Source: Atherinomorus stipes (lineage: Eukaryota > Chordata > Actinopteri > Atheriniformes > Atherinidae). From it: a stretch of DNA of 64,000 bases. Below the pieces are notes generated by a model that was not told the DNA's origin, ran no database searches, and was given only the letters and a program-made list of their open reading frames with translations. Shown in pieces: positions 3,737 to 62,154 of this stretch. Numbering within the stretch: the stretch's first letter is position 1; every line of letters begins with the position of its first letter. The stretch lies in assembly GCA_023101725.1 (NCBI GenBank), contig JALJCO010003521.1, positions 62,001-126,000 on the forward strand, given 5' to 3'. A program made the position numbers and the translations under genes.

Positions 3737-3913
3737 CATAATCAACATAAGACAAAAGAAACAGAGGTGTGTAAAAATAAAGTCAACTATTTACAATAAA
3801 ACCAAACAGAAAACGCAAAAATGAGGGTGTGAACACCATCATCCAGTTTCTGGTTAACCAAAAAAAAAGCTCAAACTACACAAATAAGTCCAACATACCA
3901 CACAAAAACATAA

Positions 3914-5129
3914 AGGAATAGTACACCCACGAAATGATGTGCGTTCATTTTTTACTCATGCTGAGCAAGACTCTTGAGCACTTTTTTAACATCTCAAATG
4001 CAGCTGGAGATCGGACAGGTTGTCGTTTCCCCCCAACTCTCATTTAATGGAGGTCACCGGCGACTGAAACAAAAAGGTCCATAAAAGTCCACAAAAACTT
4101 GTCAATATTCCTCCATACTGCTCGTCCATGTCATCCAAGTCCTGAGTGGGTAGCGTCCAGAATTTACTCAAAACGACATCATTTAGTATATTTTACAGCC
4201 TAAACAGTGCTACATTGCACTTTCTGTTTGCGCATTCATGCAAGTTCACAACACTACGGAAGCTGCAGCGTTCAGCGCCTACTCTGCCGATGATGTCAGC
4301 ATAGAAAAAGAAATTTGCTGTTTACATTGTGTTAAGAGCGAACGAGCTTTGGACAAACCAGGACAAACACAAGAGGGGGTGGCTATTGATTTAAAACAAA
4401 GAAGGAAAGAAAAAGAGAAGAATCTCAGAAACTTCTGCTTCACAGATACACATCTCCTTAGTGTCTCAAGGACAAAGCTGAGGACGATGAGACAGAGGCT
4501 TCCAGGCTGCGGCTCCACGGTTGTGGAACACTCTCCCAGCCTACCGGAGAGCTCCCCAGTCTGTGGAATCTTTTAAAAAACTTTTTAAAACATTTTTATT
4601 CCGAACAGGCTTCCAATAATGTTTATTGGGTTCTTAACGTGTTTTACTGTGTTACTTTTACATTGCTTTTATTCATACCAGTGTGTGCTTTTATCTGTTT
4701 TAGCTTTTTCTTTGTAGCACTTTGTCTTCAAATGTAAAGTGCGTTATAAATAAAATACATAAATAATTTTTTTATTATTGATCTCGTCTGCCGCAGCTTC
4801 CGTAGTGTCGTGAACTTGCATGAACAGGCTAAAAGGAAGTGCAACATAGGACTGTTTAGGCTCTAAAAATATACTAAATGATGTCACTCAGGACACTTGG
4901 ATTACATTGGACGAGGAGTATGGAGGAATACTGACAAAATTTTGTGAACTTGTATGGACCTTTTTGTTTCAGTCGCCGTGTGGACTCCATTAAATGAGAG
5001 TTGGGGGAAAACGAAAACCTGTCTGATCTCTGGCTGCATTTGAGATATTAAAAAAGTGCTCCACAGTCTTGCTCATCATGAGGGTGAGAAGAAAATGATT
5101 GCACATCATTCTGTGAGTGTACTATTCCT
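3914..5129. mobile_element. FB foldback element, copy 3 (both arms)
   Basis: Both arms, each about 350 bp, are present: 3914 to about 4265 and about 4790-5129. They are inverted copies of each other. The right end is followed by TTAA (5130-5133); the left flank is ATAA, a probable one-base decay of TTAA. The centre (about 4266-4410) matches the centre of the copy at 59893. It is interrupted by an L2-type LINE tail at about 4415-4770. Confidence 0.85.
4415..4770 (+). pseudogene. L2-group LINE, 3' end fragment
   Basis: One frame reads AAPRLWNTLPAYRRAP followed by a segment with ESFKKLFKTFLFR and then a stop. This is the characteristic extreme C-terminus of L2/CR1-group reverse-transcriptase polyproteins. 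It is followed by a 3' UTR that ends in an AATAAA-rich tail near 4745-4770. The upstream part is frameshifted against this reading. It is a 5'-truncated, dead copy lying inside the centre of FB copy 3. Confidence 0.75.
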
Positions 5130-5139
5130 TTAAGATATA

Positions 5140-32710: not shown

Positions 32711-33216
32711 ACTACGTTTACATGCCATTAAATTTGGGTTAAAGGAGTAGTACGCCCAAGGAATGATGTGCGTTGATTTTCTATTCACCTTCATGCTGAA
32801 TCAAGACTGTGGAGCACTTTTTTAATATCTCAAATGCAGCCGGAGATTGGAGAGGTTTTCGTTTTTCCCCAACTTTCATATAATGAAGTTCACCGGCGAC
32901 TGAGCCAAAAAGGTCCATAAAAGTCCACAAAAACTTTTCAGTATTCCTCCATACTGCTCGTCCAATGTAATCCAAGTGTCCTGAGTGGGTAGCGTCTAGA
33001 ATTTACTCAAAAGGGCATCATTTAGTATATTTTACAGCTTAAACAAATTATCTAATTTTTAATAAATAATTTTAAATTAAAAAACATGTAACCTGGGCCA
33101 TTGATATATAAACTAGCAAGCTGTGCAGAGTACCGTCTGATCACTGGTACAAGTACTCCCTGTAGTTTACTCAAAAGACCAAGATCTATGCGAATAGAAC
33201 ATGCACATACCACAAT
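32711..33216. mobile_element. Family U, copy 2 (inverted fragment) split by FB
   Basis: Starts GACTACGTTTACATGCC, the U terminus. After the FB insertion it continues at about 33124-33216 as the reverse complement of 27264-27380 (TACTCCCTGTAGTTT, GCGAATAGAACATGCAC). It stops at the TTAA where family V begins. Confidence 0.6.
32743..33045 (+). mobile_element. FB foldback element, copy 4 (single arm)
   Basis: Only the left arm is present, starting AGGAGTAGTACGCCC after TTAA (32739-32742). It ends around TTTAGTATATTTTACAGC. No right arm or second TTAA follows. Confidence 0.8.
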
Positions 33217-40081: not shown

Positions 40082-41788
40082 ATGGCGGATGAGATTGAAC
40101 AAGTGGCTTGGCTTTATTTACTCCACAAGGCTAGAGAACGACGTCAACAGGCATCTCGGCACTGCGTCTGGATTCACCAGATTGTTCAAAGGCGCTCTGA
40201 GTTTGGTGAGTAGTATCATCTACTCCAGGAGCTGTGCGCTGACGAGGGACACTTTCAGCGCTACTTTTAGCTGACCCGGGCCCAGTTTAACAGCCTGCTG
40301 TCCCGCATCGGTGCTCACATCACCTACCAGGACACCAACTACAGGCGCTCAATTTCACCTGAAGAGCGTCTGTCCATCTGTCTGCGGTAAGCGGGTCTCA
40401 AAAAATGTAGAGTCACACATTAATAATTATATTTATCTGTGGTGAAAAACATAGTTTTTCTAAACAAAATGTATACAAACACAGGGGCAACACATTTTCG
40501 TAAGTAAACGTGAAAGTATCCACTATAACCTACACCAGGAGTAAACCTGGACTGAACCAGGACCACATACATACATTTTAAAATTTCATGTTATAGGCCT
40601 AACATAACCACAAGGGCTAAAAAATAATGCACTCTATCCAATATAATACATATTATTTAATTTACGACCATTGATTTATTTTTAGATGTTATTCTATTTT
40701 ATGCTAATCTTTTTTTTTCTTCACATTTTTTTATATAATTGTAATAAATTCAAACATAAGAGGTCACATTTTTGTGAACAAGCTGGATATTTACTGTTAT
40801 GTTAGGGGGGGGGGAGGGGGGTTGCAGTTTTCTTACAACTGGTGACTCCTACCGGACCATCGCCAACCATCGCCAACAGTTTCCGGGTGGGTGTTTCAAC
40901 CATCTCCACCATCATCCCAGATGTGGTGACAGCTGTCTGGGACTGCCTGGTGGAGGAGTTTATGCCTGTGCCTGGAGCCGACGACTGGAGGTCCATCGTG
41001 GTGGAGTTTGAGGAGAGGTGGAATTTTCCTCTGTGCTGTGTGGCTCTTGATGGAAAGCATGTGAAAGTAAAGGCCCCCCCAACTCTGGCTCCCTTTTTTT
41101 CAACTATAAGGGAGACCACTCTTTGGTCCTTCTCGCCCTGGTTGATGCCAGCTACAGGTTCCGGGTGACAGATGTTGAGGGATATGGAAGAACCAGCGAT
41201 GGGGGGATCTTGGCCAACTCCACCTTTGGCCAGGCTCTGCGGGATGGCCCCCTCCATCTGCCTTCTGACCAGCATCTCCAAGGAGCTGAACACAGAAGAC
41301 CCCAGCCACATGTCTTCGTGGCAGATGAGGCCTTTCCACCGCTCCGAAACCTGATGCGGCCCTTCCCTGGACGTGGTGGCCTTACCCCAGAGCAGCGGGT
41401 GTTTAACTACCGTCTCTCCCGGGCTCGGCTGGTGGTGGAGGACGCATTTGGTCTGCTCAGTGGAGGAGGTTTCGCCGGGAGCTGGAGATCTTCCCAGAAG
41501 TAGTGTAGAAGTGAGCAAAGGCCACGTGTGTTCTCCACAACTTCATGAGAGCTTCTGCAGACGGGCAGGTACCAGCAGGGAGAGGAGCTGCAGCACAAGA
41601 GGAACCTGCTCCAGGTGTTGGGCGGATGGGAGCAAACTGCAGCCAGAGAGGCGACGGTTGCCAGAGATGCTTTCATGGCCTACTTCTGTGAAGAGGGAGT
41701 GGTTCCATGGCAGCCTGCGGAGGAGTGATGTCTTCTTCAGCACAAACCCACTACGGCTCTTTTCAGAGCCACCCATCCAAACTTGACA
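40082..41788 (+). pseudogene. HARBI1-like PIF/Harbinger transposase, decayed
   Basis: Harbinger nucleases cut at element ends with a DDE triad. Exon 1 (40082-40386) opens MADEIEQVAWLYLLHKARE, ends CICLR and has a GTAAGC donor. Two in-frame TAG codons break it (40211, 40268). Exon 2 begins after TTGCAG at 40828 with FLTTGDSYRTIAN. Triad candidates are D at 41049 (ALDGKH), D at 41144 (ALVDASYRF) and E at 41438 (VVEDAFG). A 10-bp tandem duplication (40857-40876) shifts the frame. A one-base loss near 41078 and further shifts near 41460 and 41510 follow. The C-terminus has TCVLHNFMR. It faces the MADF gene tail to tail. Confidence 0.85.
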
Positions 41789-42557
41789 GCCTAATTTCTA
41801 TATGTACTCATACATTTAATTTTCTGCAGTGGGCCAAATACTGAACCTATAGAAATAATTTAATCTAAAATTTTTCTTGCACAGTCCAAAGCTGTTTGTA
41901 TGTTGTTGTTGTTCATCTGTCTCCCGACTGTCTGCAGAAAATTGCTGCCCTACTGGTGCTGGCTCCGGCTCACGGAGGAAGGTTCATCACAAGTTAATGA
42001 TATGCACATTCAAGACTGACATTAGTTACAAGGTTAGCTTGTCATGTTCATGTCAAAATAATAATAACTTTAAGAATAAACCTTGCAGACAACTTTTTGG
42101 CTCTTGTTTATGCTTCTTTTATGGTATACATATTTTTCTTTTATTAATTAAATGACGTATTGAAAAAAATAAATATTTTGTGTGACTGAATTTTTTGAAG
42201 TTTTTCAAGTACCTTGCATTATGAGAAATATAAGCGTGGTGAGCTTCAAGTAGCAGACTAAGTCTGAAATAAAATATTTATTTAACAAATAGTATAAATA
42301 TAGAACGTTTTTAAACAGAAAAGTATAATGATAAATAAGTATGAGAAGAAAAACAGATTTAAAACTATTTACAAAATGATTTACAAATGGACATATGAAA
42401 CTATATATAGAAAATAAAAAATCTATACCCAACTATATACAAAAGGACCTTGCATGGAGGAAGCTTGGTGGAAGAGTGAGGGACAGTACGTTTCCTCTCC
42501 GGGAAAAGATGCCACCTCTTTTTGAAAAAAACAAACAAACAAAACAAACAAACAACA

Positions 42558-58392: not shown

Positions 58393-59888
58393 GATGCAGG
58401 TGTTTGAACTTTGAAAGCTCTGATACAGATGATCGCCTAACATTTGTGACACAATGTTTCATCTCATGATTAATGTTTATTCTTTCAACCTCACCTGTGA
58501 GCCTCCAGCATCCCTACTATCCTTCACCTGAGAAATAATATATTTATGCATGACATCAACAGTTGGACAATTTGTGGTGCAACAATCATAAATTTCTACA
58601 CGTACAGGAATAAATATGTAGTTTCACAATTCTAAGTTTGGATGCATAAAATCCTGTTTGTATAATATCTTTTCCTTTACATTATATTTATCAGCAGTGG
58701 GTCCGGGCCTGACCAGCTCCATACAATGTGGCAATAAGATTTCTTTTACAAATAAGGAAGCGATAATGAGAACAAGTCCTCTATAGAAATGAAGGAGGAT
58801 TGGCTTTATTCTTAGCATGTACTAAATAGCAAGAGATGTAGGTAACAACAACAACAGTATTCTTGTTAACGAGCTTAACATGATGTATTGGTCCGTATTA
58901 ACTAGTCATTATTTAGCTAACATTATCTGCATGGAACAGCTTCTACTTACACAGTTTGTTTGGGGGGAAAAACTGTCTGAAGTTTATTGCTGCTCTGACT
59001 GGTTAGCTGAACTTTCCTGACACCGTTCAGCAGCTCTGCTCTCCTGTCTGTGATCCACACCTGCCGGTCTAGCATGCGTGCGCTCACGGTACCTTTAAAG
59101 ACGGCTCGGAAAAAATAGTTTTGGACAGTAAAAAAAGTGCAGGGAACCAAAACGGCCTTTTGAAAAAGTGCAGGGGACATGTCCTCTGTCCCCCCCCCTC
59201 TAACATATGTCCGCGTCCATATAGTCCAGTGTTGTCAAAACTAAACCCTCAGAAATTCTGCTGGAGTCTGAATCTGTTTCCACCTCCAGTTAAAAGTGTT
59301 TTGTGTCATCAGTCTTTTCTTTCTCTGCTGTCATGAGAAACCCACACAGAAGATCAGGCTGCCTGCTTTTGTTGTCTACCTGCAGGATGTCCTGCTCATC
59401 ATTGTTGCTGTGCCCAAACATCATCGTTTATGTTCGGTGGCAGGAGACCTGAGGTGGTGCTTCACACCATCTGGCTCTCAGTGAGGATCAAACTACTTGA
59501 TTAAAGGACACAATTAACATAGAGCAGGTTTGGCTGAGTCTCCCAGCGGGGATTAATGAATGCACCCAGTCGATAATGCACACAAACACCAGGGAGCTGA
59601 ATTGTACTGTCTTAAAGAGGTGAGACAAATGGCAGGTGGAATATTTCATTCGGAGGAGGCTGAGAAGCACTGACGGTTCAGGTTCAGCACCGTCTGCTTT
59701 AACAGCAGAAACTGTCCCGAAGCTCCCTGAGGTGTGAATAAAAGAAGCAGCGACATGCAACACCAGGGGCTCCTCCTTTCTCTGATGACAGATAATCTTT
59801 AAATCTGCCTGACAGAGGCTCATCATCAGGTTTCTGGCCTCTGAATCTATTTCCAGGCAATTTTAAACATGTACTTGTTCATCAATGG
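58393..59888. other. No gene seen
   Basis: No coding or repeat feature recognised. Confidence 0.4.
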
Positions 59889-60296
59889 TTAAAGGAATAG
59901 TACACCCACAGAATGATGTGCGTTCATTTTCTACTCGCCCTCATGCTGAGCAAGACTGTGGAGCACTTTTATAATATCTCAAATGCAGCCGGAGATCGAA
60001 GTGGTTTTTGTTCTCGGCCGACGGTCATATAATGGAGTTCACCGGTGCTCAACACAAAAGGTCCATAAAAGTCCACAAAAACTTGGCAACATTCCTCCAT
60101 ACTGCTCGTCCAATGTAATCCAAGTGTCCTGAGTGGGTAGCGTCCAGAATTTATTTGAAATGACATCATTCAGTAGATTTTTATAGCTTAAACAGTCGAA
60201 CATCTAGCTCAAAAATGTTCATTGTGTCAACTTTCAAGTAGTTCCGTGTTCTCTATTAAGACATCAGTAGTGAAAAACGTAATGTTTGATTTTTAT

Positions 60297-60336
60297 CTTG
60301 ACAGTTTCGACGATCAGCTGTCGCCTTCATCAGAAG
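60297..60336 (-). ncRNA. Hammerhead ribozyme-like motif, left pseudo-LTR
   Basis: On the minus strand: CTGATGA (60327-60333), a stem-II hairpin with GGCGA pairing TCGTC, then GAAAC (60304-60308) and a GTC triplet (60300-60302). Stem I is CTT/AAG. Stem III is minimal (AC/GT around one base), as in PLE-type hammerheads that may need dimers. Cleavage is predicted after the GTC. Confidence 0.65.
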
Positions 60337-60481
60337 TTGTTGCACTGACAGCACCTGACGTGTCAGCCGGCAGTTCTTGACAGCCGGCCTGGACAGCACG
60401 CCCAGTGACGCCCTGCACGCCCAGTGACAGGTCCACCAAGCCCACACCTAATCACGTCATGGACCCGGGACAGGGGCAAGA

Positions 60482-60625
60482 GTCATCGGCACTGAGGAAA
60501 ACAAGCTCAAACGGTGGATTGAGGAGGCTGTGGAGATCAGGTAGCATGCAGATAGAGCCATGAACAGAGATGAGGGGGGCTTCAAGCTTTCCCAAGCCTG
60601 GGACCCTTTGCTTCAAAGGAAATAG
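60482..60625 (+). pseudogene. Penelope-like ORF, C-terminal remnant
   Basis: The frame reads ENKLKRWIEEAVEIR, then a TAG at 60542-60544, then HADRAMNRDEGGFKLSQAWD and a stop at 60623-60625. The pattern of a basic helix followed by AMNRDEG..LS..WD is what I know from the end of vertebrate PLE proteins, after the GIY-YIG nuclease. The catalytic reverse transcriptase and nuclease are absent. Confidence 0.7.
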
Positions 60626-60806
60626 TACGGCGGGGGAGCAGTACGCTCGGTGGTGGACAGGACTATCGGGCTTGCCTCCCCATACCATCGAGGTGTGGCG
60701 TGGTGGACCCCATGAGTCAGTCAACGCGTCAACGTCACTGGACGTGCCGTCCTGGCCGGCTGTCAAGATCTGCCGGCTGACACATCAGGCGCTGTCAGAG
60801 GAACAA

Positions 60807-60846
60807 CTTCTGATGAAGGCGACAGCTGATCGCTGAAACTGTCAAG
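60807..60846 (+). ncRNA. Hammerhead ribozyme-like motif, right pseudo-LTR
   Basis: CTGATGA (60810-60816), stem II GGCGA/TCGC with a bulge and a closing A-T pair, GAAAC (60835-60839), triplet GTC (60841-60843), stem I CTT (60807-60809)/AAG (60844-60846). It is the same motif as 60297-60336 in opposite orientation, with a one-base change in stem II. Confidence 0.65.
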
Positions 60847-61491
60847 GTAAAAAATCAAACCTTACGTTTTTCACTATTGGTGTCTGAGTAGAGAACATGG
60901 AACTACTAGTACTACATCTAGCTGCCGCGAAGCGTGCCCTTGCGAGTTTACAATACTCTAAAAGTAACAGCAGATGAGATCACACGTTATCTATTTTTTT
61001 CTTTGTTTTAAATCAACAGCCAACCCCTCTTGTGTTTGTCCGCAGCTCGTTCACTCTTAGCACAATGTAAACAGCAAATTTCTTCTTCTATGCTTAAATT
61101 ATTGGCAAAGTAGGCGCTGAAGCTGCAGCTTCCGTAGTGTTGTGAACTTGCACAAATGCCAAATGGAAAGTGTTATGTACTACTGTTTAGGCTATAAAAA
61201 TATGCTAAGTGATGTCATTTTGTGTGAAATCTGGACGCTACCCACTCAGGACACTTGGATTACATTGGATGAGCAGTATGGAGGAAGATTGACAAGTTTT
61301 TGTGGACTTCTATGGACCTTTTAGGCTCAGTCGCCGGTGAACTCCATATTATGAAATTTGCGGGGGAAAACGAAAACCTGTCGGATCTCCGACTGCATTC
61401 AAGACATTAAAAAAGTGCCCCACAGTCTTGCTCAGCTTGAGGGTGAGTAGAAATAGAAGGCACATCATTCTGTAGGTGTACTTTCCTTTAA

Positions 61492-62154
61492 CAAACAGAT
61501 CAAAATTTCCTAACTCGGCTCAGCACTACAACTGTCCTCTTCATAGAAGTTCACATTCGGATCAACAGGCTGCTGTGTGTGTTAGATTTATCTTCTGTTT
61601 GGCCTGGTGATGCTTTGTGTCATATAGCACACAGCTTGTCACCAGGCCTCTGCAGAGCTGAGTGACATGCACATGAGGTATTTTGGATGTGTTGGAGAAG
61701 GGATGGATCTAAAACTTGCAGAATTGTTGCTCTCGAGCTACCCCTGGGCTAAAGGTTAGCATTGAGATGGCGATATGGTTTTACCAAAGACTGTAAAAAA
61801 AAAAAAAAAAGACTAGTATTCGTTCACGTCTGAAGAGCTGAAGAGTTGATGCTCTTTTATAAGCATCAACTCCCTTCTTGGCAGTCCCTAGTTGTTCCAC
61901 TGGAAACAGGAAGGTACAGACCTGATTATCAGATGATTGTGTGTTTTCAGGTGCACAAAGTTAGGCACGTCAGCTAACGCTAACCTACTAACGCCAGCTG
62001 TTAGTCTGCATCATTGAAGTGTCGGTGTTGGGCCAAAATGTGATCATCATCCAAAGACTGATTAAACAGCCACGGGAGCGGTGTAGAGTGTAGCTGCAGT
62101 TTGGAAGCCAGAGGCGTGTCGTTAAGTGGGGGGTGTGGTGTACTGATGTTACTA
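61492..62154. other. No gene seen
   Basis: Short A run at 61796-61810; otherwise unremarkable. Confidence 0.4.

What the first reader, a model, noticed from the sequence alone, without database searches (positions are those of the whole stretch)
60210..60913. Compact Penelope-like insertion with two opposed hammerhead motifs and a 10-bp target duplication
The whole insertion is delimited by ACATCTAGCT. It has inverted pseudo-LTRs, each carrying a hammerhead core with stem I, and only the ORF end between them. Such a 704-bp unit would be a natural non-autonomous PLE able to make ribozyme-processed RNA from either strand. It is nested in FB copy 5.
Basis: partly seen in the sequence, partly recalled or inferred. 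Interest (0 to 1): 0.75.

Follow-up and report, generated by a model that had tools for sequence, protein, structure and literature searches.

The report
Short, dead-end Penelope retrotransposon copy
A fish-like genome carries a 704-base, two-sided stub of a known kind of jumping gene (a Penelope-like element) with a small ribozyme motif on each side, in opposite directions; it looks like an ordinary by-product of insertion rather than a new mobile element, though its two ends show how such elements are copied into DNA.

Summary
Window 60210-60913 is an insertion flanked by ACATCTAGCT inside a foldback repeat; none of 29 paralogues holds it and 26 of 29 align through the site. Its arms are head-to-head Penelope-like (PLE) pseudo-LTRs, about 90% complementary, each with a hammerhead core; the pattern occurs twice in the window, in 0 of 100 shuffles. 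Only the ORF end lies between.

The interpretation largely fails. None of 14 other matches crosses the internal junction, so no amplified deletion derivative is seen. Smaller two-armed inserts (193-300 bp) with other junctions occur elsewhere. The ribozymes are opposed: one per strand, predicted to pair with the antisense arm. Both ends lie past the cut sites, so the template was uncut there.

Best explanation: a dead-on-arrival PLE insertion made by two target-primed reverse transcriptions from the two known kinds of internal start site. One regularity: the 19 independent two-armed inserts classifiable at both ends (8 of them chosen on coordinates showing this) each have one long (tail) and one short end; 7 more were unclassifiable. 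Architecture, tail and start sites are published.

The parts
60200..60209 (.). left target-site duplicate ACATCTAGCT (AGCT also equals the usual end of the PLE tail: 4-nt microhomology)
60210..60449 (-). left pseudo-LTR arm, inverted (short cDNA arm), 240 nt
60210..60236 (-). 27-nt 'tail': extension of the left arm to the distal reverse-transcription start site
   Evidence: absent from the right arm; 23 of 44 arms compared end in this class
60300..60333 (-). hammerhead core on the minus strand, CTGATGA..GAAACTGTC; predicted cut between 60300 and 60299
   Evidence: stem II 5 bp
60450..60625 (+). [quoted passage not shown] the junction 60449/60450 was found in no other match
60626..60907 (+). 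3' untranslated part and right pseudo-LTR arm, short end class
60810..60843 (+). hammerhead core on the plus strand; predicted cut between 60843 and 60844
   Evidence: stem II 5 bp incl. a G-U pair
60908..60913 (.). AGTACT: probably target DNA (extended duplicate) rather than PLE
   Evidence: several foldback paralogues read ..AAACAGTACTACATCTAGCT..
60914..60923 (.). right target-site duplicate ACATCTAGCT
59888..60203 (+). left arm of the host foldback repeat
61175..61492 (-). right arm of the host foldback repeat

Best explanation
A dead-on-arrival insertion of a Penelope-like retrotransposon. An uncleaved PLE RNA (or two such RNAs), containing an ORF end, a pseudo-LTR with hammerhead and the start of the next unit, was reverse-transcribed from both sides of a staggered break in a foldback repeat. 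One target strand started at the distal site (tail, left end) and made about 240 nt; the other started at the proximal site (right end) and made about 460 nt. The two cDNAs were joined blunt at 60449/60450, giving head-to-head arms, only the ORF end between them, and a 10-bp (perhaps 16-bp) duplication. Shown: the anatomy, the empty site, the two end classes, no second copy of the junction. Inferred: dual target-primed priming and the joining. The hammerheads are passengers inherited from the pseudo-LTR.
For: Empty site: 0 of 29 foldback paralogues hold the insert, 26 align through. 643 candidate places for the unit in the genome, 40 scored, 111 matches. No other match crosses the junction: 0 of 14. 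41 of 44 pseudo-LTR arms (from 28 of 29 loci) end at one of two sites (23 tail, 18 short), both 3' of the ribozyme cut. All 11 independent inverted pairs classifiable at both ends in the first set, and the 8 fetched in a second set because their coordinates showed it, are one tail plus one short. Two-armed inserts of 193-300 bp with other junctions; 5 of the 8 fetched share 10-15 bp at their flanks. Frangieh 2024 (PMC11167929, main text read): an anole PLE cleaves and extends both target strands, starts internally at two sites that bound the tail, and does not need its hammerhead for insertion in vitro. Arkhipova 2013 (PMC3846280, passages seen): truncated PLE copies with inverted pLTRs, 8-10 bp duplications, and a 31-bp tail on one of the inverted pLTRs.
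Against: No direct evidence of priming; a later internal deletion in this one copy cannot be excluded. Frangieh 2024 saw no difference in start site between strands in vitro, which the one-of-each pattern would not predict without further coupling. One arm (L019) ends 4 nt before the ribozyme cut and one 5' end (L076, R395) lies exactly at cut+1, so rare use of cleaved RNA is not excluded. 7 further pairs could not be classified at one end, and places without a fetched locus were not classified. The duplicated 10 bp are 6 of 10 A/T, not a strongly AT-rich site as reported for PLEs.
Confidence: 0.8

Rival explanations
1. A longer PLE insertion with inverted pseudo-LTRs lost its interior later by deletion; the present unit is a deletion remnant.
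For: Arkhipova 2013 (PMC3846280, passages) describes such a copy with a microhomology-mediated internal deletion; longer inverted copies exist here (L003, L011, L036).
Against: The junction has no shared base with the ORF sequence of the 11 copies printed; short two-armed inserts with different interiors exist, down to 193 bp, so short products occur repeatedly.
Confidence: 0.12
2. Snap-back self-priming: one cDNA folded back and copied itself, giving the head-to-head arms (the model favoured by Arkhipova 2013).
For: Head-to-head arms are what that model predicts on an antisense template (PMC3846280, discussion passages). Over 11 pairs the two arms of one insert are on average closer (90.7%) than arms of different loci (86.4%, 935 comparisons), and in L030, L037 and L072 they share many private variants, which self-priming also predicts.
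Against: The two arms end at different start sites. In the window copy they are 89.8% identical over 128 columns; arms of other loci are closer (partner ranks 10th and 11th), and of 8 and 7 non-consensus sites only 1 is shared. Sharing in other pairs is equally explained by two cDNAs from one RNA.
Confidence: 0.05
3. A non-autonomous PLE family: a self-contained unit mobilised in trans and processed by its ribozymes on either strand.
For: Both cores are intact, as in 20 of 44 hand-listed arms by a strict pattern; duplication present.
Against: No other match with this junction (the search scores best candidates only). Opposed, not direct-repeat, ribozymes. The antisense arm sequesters the core in silico. 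Both ends lie beyond the cut sites.
Confidence: 0.03

Closest known systems
Endonuclease-containing Penelope-like elements with inverted pseudo-LTRs and a tail (Adineta vaga Pen2/Pen2a and others; PMC3846280, passages seen)
   Same: Head-to-head pLTRs, truncated copies, 8-10 bp duplications, a 31-bp tail on one inverted pLTR
   Different: Here in a fish-like genome; this copy has only the ORF end, and arms that differ by about 10%
Poseidon PAc of Anolis carolinensis (PMC11167929, main text read)
   Same: Hammerhead near the pLTR/ORF start, two internal RT start sites bounding the tail, both target strands primed
   Different: In PAc the ORF begins at stem II and runs on; in the window copy the frame from the ATG inside the core stops after 24 codons (left) or 7 (right). 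No biochemistry here
Metazoan retrozymes with type I hammerheads (PMC7229834: abstract, one results section and passages seen)
   Same: Small non-coding units with type I hammerheads
   Different: Retrozymes are direct tandem repeats that yield RNA circles; here the ribozymes are opposed and no amplified copies of the unit were found
Minimal hammerheads in PLEs, reported to cleave as dimers (Cervera & De la Pena 2014; Luense et al. 2017; recalled, texts not held)
   Same: Very short stem III, core at the pLTR
   Different: Activity not tested here

Membership tests
Penelope-like element (PLE) | ORF with RT and GIY-YIG endonuclease | tested here: inconclusive
   The window copy keeps only the ORF end; its two pieces give no Pfam hit. 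Relative L008 has a GIY-YIG stretch at E=8.3e-4, 20 bits, under the 22.6-bit cut-off; a second L008 piece gave no RT domain, only weak unrelated hits. The 259-aa L008 ORF has 165 relatives, 120 listed, many with PF26215, some with PF01541 or PF00078.
Penelope-like element (PLE) | Pseudo-LTRs in direct or inverted arrangement | tested here: met
   Inverted arms
Penelope-like element (PLE) | Tail of about 30 nt, optional, on one pseudo-LTR | tested here: met
   27 nt on the left arm only
Penelope-like element (PLE) | Short target-site duplication | tested here: met
   10 bp exact; insert absent from 29 of 29 paralogues, 26 aligning through the site
Hammerhead ribozyme, minimal type I | Conserved core CUGANGA...GAAA...NUH with stem II | tested here: met
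   in 38 arms 92.3% of cells pair, without covariation beyond shuffles
Hammerhead ribozyme, minimal type I | Score with an Rfam hammerhead model | tested here: not met
   No hammerhead family at E up to 10. The motif is therefore called hammerhead-like, activity unproven; that such models miss minimal forms is my expectation, not tested
Hammerhead ribozyme, minimal type I | Self-cleavage | not testable with these tools
   needs an in vitro assay
Retrozyme | Hammerheads in direct repeats giving unit-length RNA | tested here: not met
   One core per strand
Amplified non-autonomous element | Several copies sharing the internal breakpoint | tested here: not met
   0 of 14 other matches cross the junction

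The most novel reading that the evidence does not exclude
PLE integration in vivo obligatorily uses both internal reverse-transcription start sites, one on each strand of the target break. Every two-ended insertion would therefore have exactly one tail and one short end, and hammerhead cleavage of the template would play no part in making inserts. This would replace the self-priming model for inverted pseudo-LTRs.
Probability: 0.5. Interest if true: 0.55.

Novelty: new member of a known kind. Interest (0 to 1): 0.3.

Why it matters
The copy itself is ordinary. As a set, this genome's short PLE inserts are a natural record of how the element starts copying: two fixed start sites, seemingly one per target strand, on RNA mostly not cut by its ribozyme. 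That makes two open points testable, namely how inverted pseudo-LTRs arise and what, if anything, the PLE hammerhead does.

Tried and rejected

Control caveats: the first set (11 pairs) came from a query with both arms; 11 of the 40 loci held were second cuts of the same places and were dropped, and matches under 20 nt and the L010 array were dropped. L005 and L006 repeat the insertion of L003 and count once. Unclassifiable in the first set: L010, L019, L020, L027. The one search list shows 11 pairs besides the window; the 8 fetched were chosen because their coordinates showed one long and one short end; C5738, C2284 and C6781:868463 were left out because the partner match stops elsewhere. No pair that I looked at in either list had two tails or two short ends. 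The 44 arms are a hand list of arms reaching the core (a few begin inside it), not the 44.

Full report
What is there. The window lies in a 1.18-Gb genome, G000:C1824:62001-126000; named protein relatives of its PLE include fish (Neoarius, Alosa, Mugilogobius, Nothobranchius), so I call it fish-like. At 60200-60923 two copies of ACATCTAGCT flank a 704-bp insert. The insert has head-to-head arms: left 60210-60449 inverted, right ending at 60907. Between them is the end of an ORF (60450-60625) with an in-frame stop at 60542-60544. A strict hammerhead pattern is met once on each strand, 60300-60333 (-) and 60810-60843 (+), against 0 in 100 shuffles. Rfam has no hammerhead hit at E up to 10; the motif's stem III is 2 bp with a 1-nt loop and its stem I 3 bp.

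The insertion is real. The host is a foldback repeat with arms 59888-60203 and 61175-61492; its loop sequence has 3133 candidate places in the genome, 40 scored, 30 fetched. Of the 29 fetched paralogues besides the window's own, none has a PLE match, and 26 align on both sides of the site (12 nt left, the 10 nt, 12 nt right); L043 misses the threshold by one base, L052 is diverged and L054 deleted there. The common reading is ..AAACAGTNNNACATCTAGCTGCCGCGAAG... The right flank AGTACTACATCTAGCT agrees with the repeat 6 nt further than the 10-bp duplicate, while the left copy reads AGTCGAACATCTAGCT, so the duplication may be 16 bp with 3 mismatches. In many other PLE copies the tail ends in ..TTTTTGAGCT, so the AGCT at the left junction is 4 nt of microhomology between target and template.

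The element. The 724-bp query has 111 matches in the 40 candidates scored out of 643. A relative (L008) carries a GIY-YIG stretch (20 bits, cut-off 22.6); another L008 piece gave no RT domain. The 259-aa ORF has 165 protein relatives, 120 listed, many with PF26215 and some with GIY-YIG or RVT_1 domains. With inverted pseudo-LTRs, tail, hammerhead and duplication I file it as a PLE, the domain test being inconclusive for this copy.

Not an amplified unit. A query across the internal junction (60400-60500) gave 14 matches besides the window (15 of 15 candidates scored); all begin on the ORF side (query 51-54) and none crosses. The junction is blunt: of 11 copies printed, 10 read AAC and L002 TAC just before the shared ORF sequence, this one CCT.

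How the ends fall. I used 29 loci (11 of the 40 held were second cuts of the same places); 28 gave pseudo-LTR arms. Of 44 arms, 23 end at the tail site, 18 at the short site, 1 within 6 nt of the ribozyme cut (L019) and 2 elsewhere; L003, L005 and L006 repeat one insertion. Both sites lie 3' of the cut (by about 64 and 90 nt on the left-arm reference), so the RNA copied had not been cut there. Of 15 independent loci with head-to-head arms, 11 can be classified at both ends and all 11 are one tail plus one short; L010, L019, L020 and L027 cannot be classified at one end. The window copy is among the 11: tail left, short right. Eight small inserts of 193-300 bp (extent of the matches) fetched from the list are also one tail plus one short, but they were picked on coordinates from 11 non-window pairs, the other 3 having a partner that stops elsewhere. 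In these pairs I saw none with two tails or two short ends; places without a fetched locus were not classified. If each end chose at random the chance of 11 of 11 is at most 0.5^11 = 5e-4. Five of the eight small inserts share 10-15 bp at their flanks (L072, L073, L075, L076, L078); L071, L074 and L077 show no clear duplication.

Mechanism. Frangieh et al. 2024 (PMC11167929, main-text section read in full) report that an anole PLE protein cleaves and extends both target strands, starts reverse transcription at two internal sites that bound the tail, needs no hammerhead cleavage for insertion in vitro, and that the hammerhead cuts only with protein. They saw no start-site difference between strands. 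Arkhipova et al. 2013 (PMC3846280, passages) describe inverted pseudo-LTRs, truncated copies, 8-10 bp duplications and a tail on one of the inverted pseudo-LTRs, and favour self-priming. The manual-curation guide (PMC8969392, passages) also lists inverted pLTRs and short 3' extensions as PLE peculiarities. The window copy fits two target-primed cDNAs, one from each start site, joined in the middle. Self-priming fits less well: the two arms end at different sites, share 1 of 8 and 7 non-consensus positions, and several arms of other loci are closer to each than its partner. On the other side, over 11 pairs the arms of one insert are closer on average (90.7%) than arms of different loci (86.4%), and in L030 and L072 they share 7 of 9/8 and 5 of 6/7 such positions: one RNA served both ends there, by two primings or by self-priming.

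The ribozymes. Both window cores keep a 5-bp stem II. In 38 arms the drawn structure pairs in 92.3% of cells, with no covariation beyond shuffles. In the 704-nt transcript of either strand the core and cut-triplet bases pair more than 100 nt away with probability 0.996 or more, and the stem II pairs have probability 0.0; the plus strand folds far more stably than 20 shuffles (z = -28.5). One sense core per strand cannot release a unit RNA. So processing from either strand is not supported, though cleavage was not tested and folding during transcription was not modelled.

Known or new. The architecture, the tail, the hammerhead and the start sites are in print. Listings of searches for Penelope-like with hammerhead and ribozyme, hammerhead with Penelope and dimers, Penelope-like with inverted, tail, truncated, pseudo-LTR, Penelope with teleost and hammerhead, Penelope with twin priming (3 papers, none about PLE priming by title), Penelope with inverted pLTR and tail and Penelope with both strands and pLTR from 2020 showed, by titles and abstract starts, no paper counting end classes per insert; the library lacks most subscription journals. 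The copy is a new member of a known kind; the one-tail-one-short count is the part worth following.

Noticed in passing
L010:1868-3404: A tandem array of 33-bp units (45 copies, running to the end of the fetched stretch) made from the 3' half of the PLE hammerhead (AGCTGATCGCCGAAACTGTCACGGAAAAGTCAA): a satellite born from the ribozyme region.
   Followed up: partly
L014:1862-2002, L024:1471-1547, L036:601-726: In three inserts with different flanks one of the two arms lacks nearly the same stretch (left-arm reference about 88-184) that holds the whole hammerhead, with slightly differing breakpoints; template jumping over an RNA structure or repeated deletion.
   Followed up: partly
window 59888-61492 and copies at 3-283, 1395-2276, 3911-5133, 32737-33045: Foldback repeat family with several copies in the window and 3133 candidate places in the genome for its loop; the outer end reads TTAAAGGAATAGTACACCC, which recalls TTAA-flanked DNA transposons (label from memory).
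   Followed up: partly
window 41750-41795: Histone 3' UTR stem-loop match (35 bits, cut-off 34). The ORFs listed beside it do not look like histones; one (40842-41168) looks like a Harbinger-type transposase piece (by eye, not searched). Probably a remnant or chance.
   Followed up: partly
L003, L005, L006: One PLE insertion (CTCTTTTAAGAAG, 13 bp, shared at both flanks in L003 and L005, with one changed base in the left copy of L006) on three contigs: segmental duplication or unmerged haplotypes.
   Followed up: no
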